Assembly (NCBI GenBank): GCA_001873365.1
Contig: MNYZ01000015.1
Coordinates: forward strand, 1-51,214
Source of the DNA: Oscillatoriales cyanobacterium CG2_30_40_61
Lineage (GTDB): Bacteria > Cyanobacteriota > Cyanobacteriia > Cyanobacteriales > Microcoleaceae
DNA length: 51,214 nucleotides
Direction of reading: 5' to 3'
The notes beneath the pieces were generated by a model, which was not told the DNA's origin, did no database searches, and worked only from the letters and a program-made list of their open reading frames with translations. The translations under genes were made by a program, and so were the position numbers. This document shows positions 5,146-22,133 of this stretch, in pieces. The first letter of the stretch is position 1, and each line of letters opens with the position of its first letter.

Positions 5146-5366
5146 TCGTTGTTATCGATAAGGTTAACCGCAACGCCGTGTTGCCTGTTGCTTTTGACCT
5201 GGGTAAAACCAGGTGGGTACCTCGACCAGACTTAAAGTTTCCGAGTCTAAGCTCGGTTTACTGCCGCCTGCAATTCTCTTGGTTCCCGTATTCTTAAAGC
5301 TATAGATCAAAAAAACATATCGGCAAATCACCAACGTCGCAGCAGAACCTTGAGTTTATTATAACA
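5146..5366 (+). ncRNA. Candidate structured non-coding RNA, possibly 6S-like
   Basis: This 384-bp gap has no credible ORF but has ordered secondary structure. The closing arms are TGTTAT 5150-5155 with ATAACA 5361-5366, then AAGGTT 5160-5165 with AACCTT 5346-5351, then CTGTTGC 5185-5191 with GCAGCAG 5339-5345. Internal hairpins are ACCTGG/CCAGGT (5197-5202/5209-5214) and CCGAG/CTCGG (5241-5245/5252-5256). A TATAAT box sits 10-15 bp upstream. The length of about 200-220 nt and the long-stem shape resemble 6S RNA (ssrS), but I cannot confirm the family. It could also be another cyanobacterial sRNA. Confidence 0.45.
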
Positions 5367-16897: not shown

Positions 16898-17027
16898 GTC
16901 AATTTTTCCTAAACCTATTGTTTTCTAACAGTCTACCATTGAGAGAGTGAACTACCCACTGGATTTAAACCCACATTACCAGTTTTAGAACTTAGAAAAA
17001 AATGATCAACTTCGATCAATCCATCCC

Positions 17028-17124: not shown

Positions 17125-18654
17125 CTAGACGGTCTTTTTAACACGAGTGGTTTTGTCACCCAATTTCTGGAATAGACCCCACTCCACTTGTTCTTCTAAA
17201 TCGGCTTCTACTCCAGCGAACACATCGCGGAAGATCGTCCGAGAACCGTGCCAAATATGACCAAAGAAGAACAATAACGCAAAGCAAGCGTGAGCGTAGG
17301 TAAACCAGCCCCGGGTGCTTGTACGGAATACACCGTCCGATCCCAAGGTTTCCCGATCAAACTCGAAGGGTTCCCCTTGTTGGGCTAAACGAGCGTATTT
17401 TTTGACGGTGGGAGCATCCTTAAAGGTTTTGCCATCTAAGTTACCACCATAGAAACTGACCGTCACTCCAGCTTGTTCAAAGCTGTAGCGGGACTCAGAC
17501 CGACGGAAGGGAATATCTGCCCGAATCACACCGTCTTTATCCGTGAGGACAACGGGGAAGGTTTCAAAGAAGTTAGGAAGACGGCGAACCGATAATTCCC
17601 GTCCTTCAGAATCTTTGAATACGGGATGGCCCAACCAATTTTTGGCAATGCCGTCGCCGTTGTTCATCGGGCCGACCCGGAATAAACCGCCTTTAGCGGG
17701 GCTATTGCCCACATAGTCATAGAAAGCGAGTTTTTCGGGAATTTTTTCCCAAGCTTCAGAATAGCTATCCCCACGGGCAACGCTAGATTGTACCCGGCGT
17801 TGAATTTCCTGTTGGAAATAACCGCTATCCCATTGATAACGGGTAGGGCCAAACAGTTCGATGGGGGTAGCTGCCGAACCGTACCACATGGTTCCTGCAA
17901 CCACAAAAGCTGCGAAGAATACGGCGGCAATACTACTGGATAAAACGGTTTCAATGTTCCCCATCCGCAGGGCTTTGTATAACCTTTGGGGCGGACGAAC
18001 GGACAGATGGAATAGACCCGCAATAATCCCCACAACCCCGGCGGCAATATGGTGAGCCACGATTCCCCCCGCATTAAACGGGTTAAATCCTTCTGGCCCC
18101 CAGGCTGGGGCCACGGGTTGAATACTGCCTGTAATCCCATAGGGATCGGACACCCACATCCCAGGGCCAAATAACCCGGTTAAGTGGAAGGCTCCGAAAC
18201 CAAAGCAAAGCAGACCGGATAAGAACAGGTGAATCCCAAACATTTTGGGTAAATCCAAGGCGGGTTCACCTGTACGGGGGTCGGTAAACAGTTCTAGATC
18301 CCAAAAGACCCAATGCCAAACGGCAGCGAGGAACAGTAAACCAGACAAAATGATATGAGTAGCCGCTACTCCTTCAAAAGACCAAATCCCCGGGTTAGTG
18401 ACTGCTTCTCCGGTGAGGCTCCAGCCCCCCCAAGATTGAGTCACTCCTAAGCGGGCCATAAAGGGCATGACGAACATCCCTTGACGCCACATCGGGTTGA
18501 GGACGGGATCAGAAGGATCATAAATTGCGAGTTCATAAAGGGCCATAGATCCAGCCCAACCTGCCACCAAAGCGGTGTGCATCAGGTGTACAGAAATCAA
18601 CCGTCCCGGATCATTCAGAACGACTGTGTGTACACGATACCAGGGTAGTCCCAT
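17125..18654 (-). CDS. psbB: Photosystem II chlorophyll-binding protein CP47
   Basis: CP47 is the inner antenna of photosystem II, with six membrane helices, His ligands for chlorophyll and a large lumenal loop between helices V and VI. The 509-residue protein begins [18 protein letters not shown], has typical helices with conserved His ([36 protein letters not shown]), and ends normally. AAGGAGC lies 8 bp upstream of the ATG. The upstream flank is unusual: the tnpB element's right end lies only about 40 bp from the start codon. Confidence 0.98.
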
Positions 18655-18696
18655 TGACTACGCTCCTTCTAGTTGATAATGGTTACTTTTTTTTTG

Positions 18697-18931
18697 ACAA
18701 TCCCCGCTCTAAACAGACGAGGATTCTTGATTGAGCGACTGACCTTTAAGCACTATGTCCTTGCGGCAATTCTTAAACCTCCTAACCGTACTACTGTAAT
18801 AATTAGAAAGTCTAAGTCACAGCTACCCCAGAGGGTCTATCTCTACTCATCTTACTACTATACAAGCTTAGAGTTCGGGCCTGTGCCGCCCTAGTGAACT
18901 ACCTACACCGCCCTAATCGGTTCGGTGTAGG
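18697..18931 (-). ncRNA. Candidate reRNA (omegaRNA) region overlapping the tnpB 3' end
   Basis: TnpB guide RNAs run from inside the 3' end of tnpB to the element's right end, with the guide taken from flanking DNA. Here a 9-bp hairpin (CCTACACCG/CGGTGTAGG, 18902-18910/18923-18931) overlaps the tnpB stop codon and the RE hairpin lies at 18699-18725. A guide made from this locus would come from the psbB leader (about 18675-18693). The position is an inference from family behaviour. Confidence 0.4.
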
Positions 18932-20114
18932 CTTCTGATTTCACAGACCGATGCCCCTTACTTTTACAAGCAGGTGGTCTTACACAGCCTCCATCAGCAA
19001 AAACGGGGTTCCCTCCGCCTTTAGTTAATATTCTGACACCTTCGTTCCTGATATTCAGTGCAGCGTTTTCATCGCGGTCATGGTGAGTTTGACAACTTGG
19101 ACAATCCCACTCCCTGACATCGAGAGATAACTCATCCAGTATATGACCGCAACAAGAACAAGTTTTGGAACTAGGGAAAAAGCGATCAATTTCTACAAGT
19201 TCGCCACTTTTTTGCTTCAACTTATAATCAATAAAGTTGATGAATTTTCCCCATCCCACATCAGATATTGACTGGGATAACTTTCGGTTCTTAACCATCC
19301 CCTTGACATTGAGGTTTTCAACGACAATCACTTGGCTTTCGTTTACCAATTTTCTTGATAACTTATGCAAGAAATCTTGGCGGGAATTGGCTATTTTCTC
19401 ATGAACCTTAGCTACATTTTTTCTGAATTTCTCTCTCGATTTACTTCCTTTAGTTTTTCGAGAGAGTTTTTTCTGTTTTCGAGCAAGATTCTTTTGGTGA
19501 CGTTTTAAGTATTTTGGATTAGCATATTTAGTAACATTTTCTCCATTATGAACAATTGCAAAATCTTTTAAACCGAGATCAATTCCAATAATTTTATCTC
19601 CTGATTCCTTGACTTCACTTGGCTCTACTTCACATAAGATAGAAGCAAAGTATTTATTGCTTGAAGTCCGGGAAATTGTCACTGTTTTGATTTTTCCTGT
19701 AATCTCTCGGTGAAATATAGCTTTGATTTCACCAATCTTAGGGACTTTTAGATATTCACTATTAACAGTAACATTCTGAGGATACTGAATTGATTGCTTG
19801 TTATGTTTAGATTTGAATTTAGGAAATTTAGCTCTTCCCTCAAAGAAGTTTTTGTAGGCTCTATCTAAGTTAATGGCTACACAGTGGAGAACCGATGAGT
19901 AGCAATCTTCTTTCAGCCAAGGATATTCTTTTTTGAGTTGAGGTAACATCCCTTTATAGGATTCTAATTTTAGGCTTTTGCCAGTTTCTTGATAGTGCCC
20001 AATACAGGCGTTTAAGGCAAAATTCCAATACCACCTCGCACAGCCCCATGATTTAGCCAATGCCAATTCCTGTTCTGGTGTTGGATAGAGTCTAACCTTT
20101 GTAGCCTTGAGCAC
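18903..20114 (-). CDS. tnpB: RNA-guided endonuclease TnpB (IS200/IS605 family)
   Basis: TnpB cuts DNA complementary to an element-encoded RNA and helps the element persist at its site. The 403-residue protein has the N-terminal helix-turn-helix-like domain (KATKVRLYPTPEQE) and a RuvC-like domain with Asp179 (GIDLGLKDF), Glu266 (VVENLNV) and Asp348 (DRDENAALNI). A zinc ribbon has Cys319/Cys322 and Cys338/Cys341. All catalytic residues are present and the frame is intact, so it is probably active. It begins with GTG. It is co-directional with psbB downstream. Confidence 0.95.
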   Translation of the reverse strand: MLKATKVRLYPTPEQELALAKSWGCARWYWNFALNACIGHYQETGKSLKLESYKGMLPQLKKEYPWLKEDCYSSVLHCVAINLDRAYKNFFEGRAKFPKFKSKHNKQSIQYPQNVTVNSEYLKVPKIGEIKAIFHREITGKIKTVTISRTSSNKYFASILCEVEPSEVKESGDKIIGIDLGLKDFAIVHNGENVTKYANPKYLKRHQKNLARKQKKLSRKTKGSKSREKFRKNVAKVHEKIANSRQDFLHKLSRKLVNESQVIVVENLNVKGMVKNRKLSQSISDVGWGKFINFIDYKLKQKSGELVEIDRFFPSSKTCSCCGHILDELSLDVREWDCPSCQTHHDRDENAALNIRNEGVRILTKGGGNPVFADGGCVRPPACKSKGHRSVKSEAYTEPIRAV

Positions 20115-20196
20115 TTTAAATCACCGCCTTTTTTTAATTATAACCAATTATTGACATTTTCAGAGCTAAAGGCACTGAGATTGCTAAGAGAGCATT

Positions 20197-20224
20197 AGTA
20201 TAATATCACGAACCCTGACTACAA
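20197..20224 (-). promoter_or_regulatory. Candidate promoter upstream of tnpB and psbB
   Basis: On the minus strand TTGTAG (20219-20224), a 16-bp spacer and TATACT (20197-20202) form a credible housekeeping promoter. It lies about 85-110 bp upstream of tnpB. It could belong to tnpB or could be the native psbB promoter now separated from psbB by the element. Confidence 0.4.
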
Positions 20225-20239
20225 TTAACCCCACACAGA

Positions 20240-20611
20240 CTATAGGCTTTGGTTAATTTGACATTCCGTTGTGGCACTGGCTAAACGTTCTAGGACTTGT
20301 TCAGCCGTAATTAGGCGGGTGAGAACTACTTGACCAATGGTATTAGGGGAGTCGCTGGTTGTACTGAGATCCGGTCTGACTTCTAGCATCAAAACAGAAT
20401 CTTCAACCCGATACAGCCACATTTTTTCCTGTTGCTTCTGATCCCACAAACACAAATCCATTCTTTGAATATCCGGTGGACGGCGCCGCAGAGCTTGATC
20501 CCACAGACCCCCTACTCCCCAGACTCGTCCAATTGTCCATCCATCGGTTAAAAAAAAGTATTTCACAGACTTCCTTAAACAAACTGACTTTGGCTCCGAA
20601 TTTTTTAGCAT
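20240..20611 (-). CDS. Conserved cyanobacterial hypothetical protein
   Basis: The 123-residue protein has no membrane segment or recognised enzyme motif. The core YFFLTDGWTIGRVWGVGGLWDQALRRRPPDIQRMDLCLWDQ is Trp- and Arg-rich and resembles small conserved cyanobacterial proteins. The true start may be GTG at 20563, which has GGAAG closely upstream, rather than the ATG at 20611. It lies just upstream of the tnpB element on the same strand. Function unknown. Confidence 0.65.
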   Translation of the reverse strand: MLKNSEPKSVCLRKSVKYFFLTDGWTIGRVWGVGGLWDQALRRRPPDIQRMDLCLWDQKQQEKMWLYRVEDSVLMLEVRPDLSTTSDSPNTIGQVVLTRLITAEQVLERLASATTECQINQSL

Positions 20612-20810
20612 ACCGCGAAAAGATCTATCGTTCTCAATTCAGGGGTAAAATTTGTCTAAGGTCTTGACCCTAGATTGATCACTCAAAAGATATCCAATCA
20701 CAGAAACAGGTTATCTGTTTTGGCGTTTCTGGTTTGAGGCTAGTATTTTTTGGGGAAAATTGACAGATCTCTGTCAACCCTTAAATTAATTATTGAGAAC
20801 TATTGAAATT

Positions 20811-21437
20811 ATGAACAATTCCCCTGGTTTTGTCAGGTTGGTGACTCATCGAGTTCCGAATCAAAGTTTATCCCAATTGATCTCACGGGGGGGTATTTTA
20901 TTATCAACAACAGGGTTAATATTTACCAGTAGTATTAGTGCTTTGTCTCAGGAACATCCGGGTTGTTTTATGAAAACAAAAGCCGGAGAGGTTATGTCTT
21001 TAAATGGAAACCTCTGTATCTTTCCAGAAACTGATCAAAAAACTATTGTTTCTCCTCTCTCAACCCCTGGAGTTTATCAGGCTAAAATCATCAAAAAAGA
21101 ACAAGGAATTCCGGTAATTGAAGCCATATTTAATGATCAAGTTACCTTTGAAATGATGGTGGATACCGGAGCTACTGGAACGGTGATTACTCCTGGGATG
21201 GCGGGGCGGTTAAAGGTTGTTCCTATCGGTCGGGTTAAAGCAGATACACCGAGTCAGAAGGGAGTTGAATTTGATTTGGGTTCTATTCAAAGTCTGAATG
21301 TGGCTGGAGCTGTTAAAAGTAATATTACCGTGGCGATCGCTCCGATGTTAAATGTGGGTTTATTGGGGCAAGATTTTTTTGCTGAATATGATGTTACAAT
21401 TAAGGAAGATGTGGTTGAGTTTCGAGCCAGACAATAA
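20811..21437 (+). CDS. Secreted retropepsin-like aspartic protease, copy 1
   Basis: From the ATG at 20811 (a TTG frame start at 20793 is unlikely) the protein is 208 residues. A hydrophobic N-terminal segment (about 26-45) is followed by a mature domain beginning EHPGCF. The single catalytic motif is MVDTGATGTVIT, with the later hydrophobic partner GLLGQDFF; one such domain must dimerise to form an active site. The pairs PGCF and NLCIFP suggest a disulfide in an exported domain. It is tandem with a paralog 115 bp downstream. Family: clan AA, TIGR02281-like. Confidence 0.85.
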   Translation: MNNSPGFVRLVTHRVPNQSLSQLISRGGILLSTTGLIFTSSISALSQEHPGCFMKTKAGEVMSLNGNLCIFPETDQKTIVSPLSTPGVYQAKIIKKEQGIPVIEAIFNDQVTFEMMVDTGATGTVITPGMAGRLKVVPIGRVKADTPSQKGVEFDLGSIQSLNVAGAVKSNITVAIAPMLNVGLLGQDFFAEYDVTIKEDVVEFRARQ

Positions 21438-21551
21438 ACAATAAACTCAACTTCCAGGAAACCATGGGATTAATTAATCCTGATGAATATTTGGGGAATA
21501 ATTTAAGGATTGAACCCTCTAATTTTTAAATCAGAATCACGGGGTGAGACT

Positions 21552-22133
21552 ATGATCAAAGCAATTTCGATCCGTTCCTATACCCTTAAACTTAGTTTTA
21601 CTTTCCTTTTAACAGGAGGTTTACTAAATAGTATTTCAGTCAAAGCTCAAGAATATCCAGGCTGTTTTATTCGGGAAAAATCTGGAGATGTAGTTAATTT
21701 AACCCAGTCTGTTTGTGGTTTGTTTCCGACTTCATCTCCCCTATCTGCTAACCCGAAAACCCAGGGAGTTTTTCAAATTCCGATTAAACGCCGACAGGGA
21801 GGAATTCCGGTTATTGATGTTAATTTTAATGGTCAAAAATCCTTTGAGATGTTATTAGATACCGGAGCAACTGGAGTAGTAATTACTGCGGAAATGGCCT
21901 TAGCCTTAGCCGTTAAACCCACTGGATTTATACCTGTTAATACAGCCAGCGATCGCAAAATTAATCAAGAAATTGGTCGTGTAAATTCTATTGACGTCGG
22001 AGGGTTACAGATGAAAGATATAGAAGTTTCTATTTCTCCGGTATTAGAAATTGGACTTCTAGGACAAAGTTTTTTTGGAAGTTATGATATCTCCATTAAA
22101 CAAGATACCATCGAATTCCGCGCCCGAGCCTAA
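21552..22133 (+). CDS. Secreted retropepsin-like aspartic protease, copy 2
   Basis: This 193-residue paralog of the preceding gene has a signal peptide (MIKAISIRSYTLKLS start, cleavage near VKAQ). It shares the PGCF...C pattern, the aspartic motif LLDTGATGVVIT and GLLGQSFF. The start is the ATG at 21552; the frame begins earlier with TTG at 21510. Co-orientation and close spacing suggest local duplication and possible co-transcription, so the two could form a heterodimer. Confidence 0.85.
   Translation: MIKAISIRSYTLKLSFTFLLTGGLLNSISVKAQEYPGCFIREKSGDVVNLTQSVCGLFPTSSPLSANPKTQGVFQIPIKRRQGGIPVIDVNFNGQKSFEMLLDTGATGVVITAEMALALAVKPTGFIPVNTASDRKINQEIGRVNSIDVGGLQMKDIEVSISPVLEIGLLGQSFFGSYDISIKQDTIEFRARA

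What the first reader, a model, noticed from the sequence alone, without database searches (positions are those of the whole stretch)
18655..20240. TnpB element inserted about 40 bp upstream of the psbB start codon
The right end of the tnpB element ends near 18694 and the psbB ATG is at 18654. The native promoter of an essential photosystem gene must therefore lie inside the element or beyond it. A good candidate promoter (20197-20224) sits upstream of tnpB. psbB may be read through tnpB, or an outward promoter in the right end may drive it. Insertion so close to psbB, with an intact tnpB, is unusual.
Basis: partly seen in the sequence, partly recalled or inferred. Interest (0 to 1): 0.72.

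Follow-up and report, generated by a model that had tools for sequence, protein, structure and literature searches.

The report
Nested mobile elements upstream of psbB
In this Planktothrix genome a gene for an RNA-guided DNA-cutting enzyme has landed inside an older mobile guide-RNA element next to a core photosynthesis gene, and in most of the Planktothrix genomes examined the gene's probable old promoter is no longer found there.

Summary
The tnpB gene (18903-20114, -) and the psbB start (18654) are real, but two elements were read as one. The tnpB element ends at 18894, 239 bp from psbB: 13 of 13 copies in relatives end at the same GTTCAC. The IS-like end at 18694, 39 bp from psbB, belongs to an older element: 18694-18893 is the truncated 3' part of a tnpB-less mobile unit (432 nt when complete) that carries a covarying omegaRNA-like RNA. 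Five of nine congeners carry the unit upstream of psbB without tnpB; two of them (G007, G004) show the empty site TTTAG|TAGGGCG, TTTAG being the motif before most tnpB elements of this family. A deletion then removed the tnpB left end and part of the unit. Where psbB transcription starts was not determined. The components are known kinds; the arrangement is moderately interesting and testable.

The parts
17125..18654 (-). psbB (CP47), intact
   Evidence: ORF; PF00421 E 1.8e-275 over residues 1-500
18655..18693 (-). what remains of the native psbB leader (39 nt, with the likely ribosome site AGAAGGAG)
   Evidence: aligns with AAAAAAGTAGACCATTATCAACTAGGAGG... of G003/G002; native site AGCAAAGTTAT|AAAAAAGTAGACC in G003 against unit end GTCAA|AAAAAAAGTAACC here
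18694..18893 (-). truncated 3' part of a tnpB-less, omegaRNA-bearing mobile unit (432 nt in the one copy measured between empty-site borders); its right end is at 18694
   Evidence: present upstream of psbB without tnpB in G001, G004, G006, G007, G009; other copies elsewhere; covarying fold; precise insertion at rplM of G008; R1 match 18695-18896 (this sequence was among the 16 that built the model)
18894..20147 (-). tnpB element remnant: right end exact at 18894, left end deleted; left border ambiguous within about 20144-20161
   Evidence: 13 of 13 relative copies end at GTTCAC; left ends of relatives; the junction resembles both parent sequences over AATGT(T)CAA
18903..20114 (-). tnpB, GTG start, 403 aa, RuvC motif residues present
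   Evidence: NF040570 358 bits, cut-off 100; aligned to ISDra2 TnpB 8bf8, E 5.8e-78; pairwise dN/dS 0.08-0.13 against 8 open relatives
18903..18930 (-). hairpin of the tnpB element's right end (CTACACCG...CGGTGTAG), overlapping the 3' end of tnpB
   Evidence: sequence; kept in most relatives' copies
18878..18893 (-). predicted guide segment of the TnpB omegaRNA (first 16 nt beyond the right end, lying in the older unit)
   Evidence: position; rule that the guide is encoded just outside the RE: PMC8612924 and PMC10278001 (passages); of 10 genus genomes, within 3 mismatches, TTTAG-flanked matches only in G007 and G004, one mismatch each
20197..20224 (-). promoter-like site of the left flank (TTGTAG-16-TATACT), candidate for tnpB and read-through into psbB; the flank weakly resembles a tnpB-element left end
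   Evidence: TATAAT in G007 and TATATT in G001, changed at the -10 in G006 and G004; left-end HMM hit in G007 E 3.8e-4, weaker in others, none listed for G000 (the G000 entry there did not reach this flank); not above chance as a promoter pattern
20240..20611 (-). 123-aa ORF upstream, no Pfam or NCBIfam match at E 0.001; its 3' end marks the left limit of the psbB upstream region
   Evidence: homologous frame found in the same place in the other 8 Planktothrix regions and, at least in part, in 14 of 20 others

Best explanation
The psbB upstream region of this Planktothrix genome was built in steps. (1) Shown by comparison: a conserved promoter-like block (TTGCAA-17-TACACT) found upstream of psbB in G002, G003 and several other genera is missing in the other seven Planktothrix examined. 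(2) Shown: a tnpB-less mobile unit of the IS200/IS605 type, carrying an omegaRNA-like structured RNA, inserted at TTAT|AAAAAA, 39 nt before the psbB ATG, in an ancestor of at least six of these genomes. (3) Shown: a TnpB element of a different omegaRNA family later inserted inside that unit at TTTAG|TAGGGCG in this genome's lineage. (4) Inferred from the junction: a deletion between similar AATGT(T)CAA sequences then removed the tnpB left end and about 97 bases of the (already left-truncated) unit, so the tnpB copy probably cannot move by itself any more, although the gene and right end are intact. Works like: an ordinary TnpB homing system whose guide (16-20 nt past the right end) is now unit sequence in the psbB leader, so it would cut TTTAG-bearing empty alleles such as those of G007 and G004, if one mismatch is tolerated, and not its own locus. 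psbB itself is inferred to be transcribed either from a start inside the 239 bp it shares with the unit-bearing congeners (about 50%) or by read-through from the 20197-20224 site through tnpB (about 35%).
For: tnpB element borders: 13 of 13 right ends; TTTAG before the left end in 11 of 14 copies, GTTAG in 1, unrelated left ends in 2. Empty sites in G007 and G004. No TnpB homologue in the 1000 bp before psbB in 8 of 8 congeners examined, all of which reach the upstream ORF (G005 not examined, its contigs break there). Unit mobility: rplM site empty as TTTAT|T(C/G)TTAAA in 8 of 8 genomes read, filled by 432 nt in G008 with no target duplication. Unit RNA: 35 of 65 predicted pairs have double-sided changes in 21 sequences; model R1 matches the 3' ends of tnpB genes in L140 (E 4.6e-26) and L142 (1.2e-24). 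psbB insertion site: G003 AGCAAAGTTAT|AAAAAAGTA, G001 AGCAAAGTGAT-unit-AAAAAAAAGTA. Promoter block: above the inclusion threshold in 13 of 29 upstream regions, 2 of 9 Planktothrix and 11 of 20 others (11 of the 13 built the profile, G038 and G010 did not); absent from window 18655-21000.
Against: No transcription data: that the block is the psbB promoter, and that it no longer acts, is inference. Nine of 20 regions outside the genus also lack the block, so psbB can be expressed without it there too; only 29 of the 59 genomes were examined. No convincing sigma-70 site lies in the shared 239 bp (best 8 of 12). A shuffled-sequence test of unit against tnpB 3' ends by global alignment was mostly negative, and part of the R1 score against tnpB genes comes from the shared terminal hairpin. 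The deletion step rests on one genome and one junction.
Confidence: 0.86

Rival explanations
1. psbB is the second gene of a tnpB-psbB transcript started at 20197-20224; TnpB then trims the message and its guide is the 5' leader of psbB.
For: The site has TATACT here, TATAAT in G007 and TATATT in G001; tnpB lost its left end, so it needs an outside promoter; no terminator-like hit on the psbB strand between it and psbB; a TnpB processes its own mRNA at the 5' side (PMC10278001, passages).
Against: The -10 is altered in G006 and G004, where an element left end abuts; those strains would need another start. The pattern is not above chance.
Confidence: 0.35
2. One reading: a single tnpB element ends at 18694 and 18697-18902 is its right end.
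For: 18694 is a true IS605-type end with a terminal hairpin (one search shows the same hairpin after tnpB genes of another family, L140 and L142).
Against: 13 of 13 copies end at 18894; the 200 bp occur without tnpB in relatives and at other loci; model R1 finds no match at E up to 1 in the four copies of this tnpB element that were searched, L055, L056, L060, L067.
Confidence: 0.02
3. 18694-18893 is a psbB regulatory leader RNA of the genus, not a mobile element.
For: Kept upstream of psbB in six genomes, with 0-3 of 65 pairs broken in the five complete enough to count.
Against: Copies stand at many other loci, with a precise insertion at rplM; two congeners have the native sequence instead; the copy in this window is truncated with 5 of 55 pairs broken.
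Confidence: 0.05
4. The TnpB here is domesticated as an RNA-guided regulator of psbB (TldR-like).
For: Probably immobilised copy with an open frame, next to a core gene; low pairwise dN/dS.
Against: RuvC motif residues are present; dN/dS against mobile copies mostly reflects their shared past; within 3 mismatches the predicted guide has no TTTAG-flanked target in this genome.
Confidence: 0.04

Closest known systems
ISDra2-type TnpB of IS200/IS605 (PMC8612924, passages)
   Same: TnpB sequence family and RuvC motif residues, right end next to the gene's 3' end, guide outside the right end, short motif 5' of the insertion
   Different: motif TTTAG here instead of TTGAT; left end lost in this copy; tnpA not searched for
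PATEs, palindrome-associated transposable elements (PMC3119063 and PMC7290912, passages)
   Same: no transposase gene, ends related to IS605-type elements, no target duplication (seen at rplM)
   Different: 432 nt with a long covarying omegaRNA-like RNA; no Rfam match at E up to 10 in the two copies tested at that level
Omega RNA / reRNA of TnpB (PMC8612924, PMC10278001, passages)
   Same: 3' end coincides with the right end; the model also matches the 3' ends of tnpB genes (L140, L142)
   Different: about 280 nt in the tnpB-less unit against about 150 nt for ISDra2; binding to a TnpB not tested
IS200/IS605 elements of Planktothrix (PMC9366434, passages only)
   Same: IS200/IS605 is the most abundant IS family there (30%); TnpB groups of 1212 bp are listed, the length of this gene
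   Different: in that main text the words psbB, non-autonomous and promoter do not occur

Membership tests
IS200/IS605 TnpB | TnpB protein with RuvC and zinc-ribbon parts | tested here: met
   D, E and D aligned with ISDra2 (D191 seen in PMC8612924 passages; the other two positions recalled)
IS200/IS605 TnpB | defined right end shared by copies | tested here: met
   13 of 13 end at GTTCAC
IS200/IS605 TnpB | left end preceded by a fixed short motif | tested here: not met
   met in relatives (TTTAG in 11 of 14); in this copy the left end is deleted, so it is a remnant, not a complete element
IS200/IS605 TnpB | TnpA Y1 transposase partner | not tested
   no search for tnpA was made; many IS605 elements are tnpB-only (recalled)
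IS200/IS605 TnpB | RNA-guided cleavage | not testable with these tools
   needs an assay
PATE-like tnpB-less unit | no transposase gene in the unit | tested here: met
   432 nt between empty-site borders at rplM
PATE-like tnpB-less unit | ends related to IS605-type elements | tested here: met
   terminal hairpin and RNA shared with tnpB genes L140, L142
PATE-like tnpB-less unit | moves without target duplication | tested here: met
   rplM empty and filled sites; one locus
omegaRNA | conserved RNA fold up to the right end | tested here: met
   35 of 65 pairs with double-sided changes
omegaRNA | binds a TnpB | not testable with these tools
   a TnpB of the L142 family with an overlapping R1 match exists in this genome at C89:44314-45522; binding untested
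TldR (inactive TnpB regulators) | loss of RuvC catalytic residues | tested here: not met
   residues present; the definition is recalled

The most novel reading that the evidence does not exclude
In most Planktothrix the ancestral promoter of a core photosystem II gene has been replaced by sequence of mobile omegaRNA elements, which now serve as promoter and leader; in this genome the guide of a nested TnpB is cut from the psbB message itself, so that guide supply follows photosystem expression.
Probability: 0.22. Interest if true: 0.65.

Novelty: new member of a known kind. Interest (0 to 1): 0.42.

Why it matters
If transcript mapping agrees, it is a traceable case of selfish guide-RNA elements rewiring the promoter of a core photosynthesis gene, with before, intermediate and after states in sequenced strains. 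It also gives a covarying omegaRNA-like RNA that had no Rfam match in the copies tested, and natural empty and filled alleles for testing TnpB homing.

Tried and rejected
Rfam: the only gathering-level match in the window is 6S RNA; none in seven loci with units; in 18600-20700 one match at E up to 5, PsrR1 at E 3.7 inside tnpB and far under its cut-off, taken as chance; none at E up to 10 for two full units. A HEARO/IscB reading of the unit was considered and dropped on this ground. Global alignment of units against tnpB 3' ends versus 300 shuffles: the rplM unit scored below the null mean in all three tests; the G028 unit beat all shuffles only for L142, not for L140 or L131; the claim therefore rests on R1 and the fold. 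Promoter patterns are at chance level and no strong site lies in the shared leader. Left-end remnant in the left flank: E 3.8e-4 in G007, 0.016 in G006, 0.094 in G004, 0.76 in G001 and G009; kept as a hint only. The 1000-bp region of G000 used ends inside tnpB; for the promoter block this was repaired by searching window 18655-21000 (best E 0.49), for the left-end search it was not. One search also found a 23-residue TnpB-like stretch upstream of psbB in G014, outside the genus, not followed. Literature: no paper held the three terms on a psbB promoter start in cyanobacteria; searches listed no paper that I saw to describe this locus, judged from listings, abstract starts and the passages only. 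No structure prediction was run.

Full report
What is there. The window is contig 52 of a 4.8-Mb genome whose genus is Planktothrix: records matching the psbB start include P. rubescens PCC 7821 and P. paucivesiculata PCC 9631, whose contig lengths equal those of G001:C1 and G007:C133. tnpB (18903-20114, -) is an open 403-aa frame; among solved structures its closest natural relative is ISDra2 TnpB (E 5.8e-78; a designed nuclease scored higher). psbB (17125-18654, -) is intact.

Two elements, not one. A DNA search of 59 genomes (58 relatives and the own) returned the tnpB element and the psbB upstream region as separate blocks: the closest tnpB copies matched from query 541-571 to 1807-1809, and the psbB regions of the genus from 1792-1800 on, or only from 2009 on (G002, G003) or 1969 on (G005, at a contig end). 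In 13 of 13 tnpB copies with their right end fetched, the element ends at GTTCAC, which is window 18894. Of 14 left ends, 11 follow TTTAG, one GTTAG, and two are unrelated. In G007 and G004 the psbB upstream region carries TTTAG|TAGGGCG with no tnpB, which is the empty site of the window's insertion. Against G007, the window lacks the tnpB left end and about 97 bases of the older unit; both sides of the junction share AATGT(T)CAA, so a deletion after insertion is the simplest reading. The unit of G007 and G004 is itself shorter on the left than that of G001 or G006.

The older unit. The sequence 18694-18893 has relatives at many other loci. The copy at rplM of G008 runs from C(GAGAATTTGGG) after TTTAT to GTGTCAA; eight of eight congeners read have the uninterrupted TTTAT|T(C/G)TTAAA there (only G000 has G), and G008 has 432 nt in between, without a target duplication (G005 gave no rplM match). 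Twenty-one copies give a consensus fold in which 35 of 65 pairs show changes on both sides. A covariance model of the 3' 200 positions, built from 16 sequences including the window's, matches the 3' ends of tnpB genes in L140 and L142 and several tnpB-less repeats, and 13 to 74 places per Planktothrix genome at E up to 0.01 (150 candidates scored per genome, so these may be lower bounds). I read the unit as a PATE-like, tnpB-less carrier of an omegaRNA. Some of the model's score against tnpB genes comes from the common end hairpin, and a simpler alignment test was mostly negative.

The psbB promoter. I examined 29 psbB upstream regions of 1000 bp, 9 of Planktothrix and 20 of others, out of the 59 genomes. 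A profile built from 11 of them finds the block TTGCAAT.GGTTCTAAC.ATCGATACACTTCTTTAA, or a weaker form, above the inclusion threshold in G002 and G003 and in 11 of the 20 outside the genus: at 177-205 bp from the ATG in eight, 377-498 bp in G018, G023, G011 and G038, and 276 bp in the weakest, G010. It has the spacing of a promoter, but no experiment was available. The other seven Planktothrix regions do not show it (G000, G001, G004, G006, G007, G008, G009); in all but G000 the region reaches the next gene upstream, and for G000 window 18655-21000 was searched as well. In G001 and G009 the unit follows AGCAAAGTGAT, the counterpart of the native AGCAAAGTTAT of G003, and before that lies another IS605-like end, CTGAGAACGTCAA; G008 has CTGAGAGTGTCAA at the same place. 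So element ends reached this leader more than once, and the block was probably lost before or with the first of them. Nine of 20 outside genomes lack the block too, so its absence alone does not prove that a promoter was damaged.

Where psbB starts now. The other stretch shared by the six unit-bearing genomes is the last 239 bp, where the best patterns are weak. I lean to a start in that stretch (about 50%) over read-through from the left flank (about 35%).

TnpB. Eight of the 13 relative copies are open over at least 395 aa by my test; five are broken or shorter than that cut. dN/dS of the window copy against the eight is 0.08-0.13, which mainly says that the gene was recently under constraint. 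The predicted guide, the 16 nt from 18893 down, has TTTAG-flanked matches (up to 3 mismatches in a 23-nt pattern, 10 genus genomes) only in G007 and G004, each with one mismatch; in this genome the sole match is the filled site itself, where TTCAC stands in place of TTTAG. This fits the published model in which TnpB cuts empty sites (PMC8612924, passages).

Verdict. The sequence features are real, but the boundary and the cause were misassigned. All components are known kinds. What lifts it above routine is the turnover of a photosystem gene's upstream region by nested guide-RNA elements, with intermediates preserved in sequenced relatives.

Noticed in passing
window 16947-16955: A second copy of the tnpB right-end letters (GTAGTTCAC on the - strand) lies just downstream of psbB, preceded by ACTGG...CCAGT; these are the only two such sites in the window.
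   Followed up: no
L117, L121, L116, L128, L118, L111, L124: Copies of the tnpB-less unit stand upstream of, and in the same sense as, genes matching trigger factor, ribosomal protein L13, MreB, PAPS reductase and FraC, and, below curated cut-offs, a phycobilisome linker (ApcE by recall) and a PBP1A-like protein; other copies are not placed so, and the bias was not tested.
   Followed up: partly
L043 (G004 psbB upstream): A further IS605-like insert of about 230 bp sits at TTAT of the psbB left flank in G004; not seen there in the other genomes printed.
   Followed up: no
L164 (G008 psbB upstream): G008 has a shortened unit about 270 bp upstream of psbB and another IS605-like end about 50 bp upstream, and lacks the conserved promoter block.
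   Followed up: partly
L131-L134, L143, L144: Another family of repeats without a tnpB frame at the end, alike over the 380 nt displayed, in genomes outside Planktothrix, ends with the same hairpin and matches model R1 where tested (L131, L132, L144).
   Followed up: no
window 5161-5348: 6S RNA gene on the - strand.
   Followed up: no
window 20793-22133: Two adjacent similar ORFs with a DTGAT motif like aspartic proteases (motif recalled).
   Followed up: no
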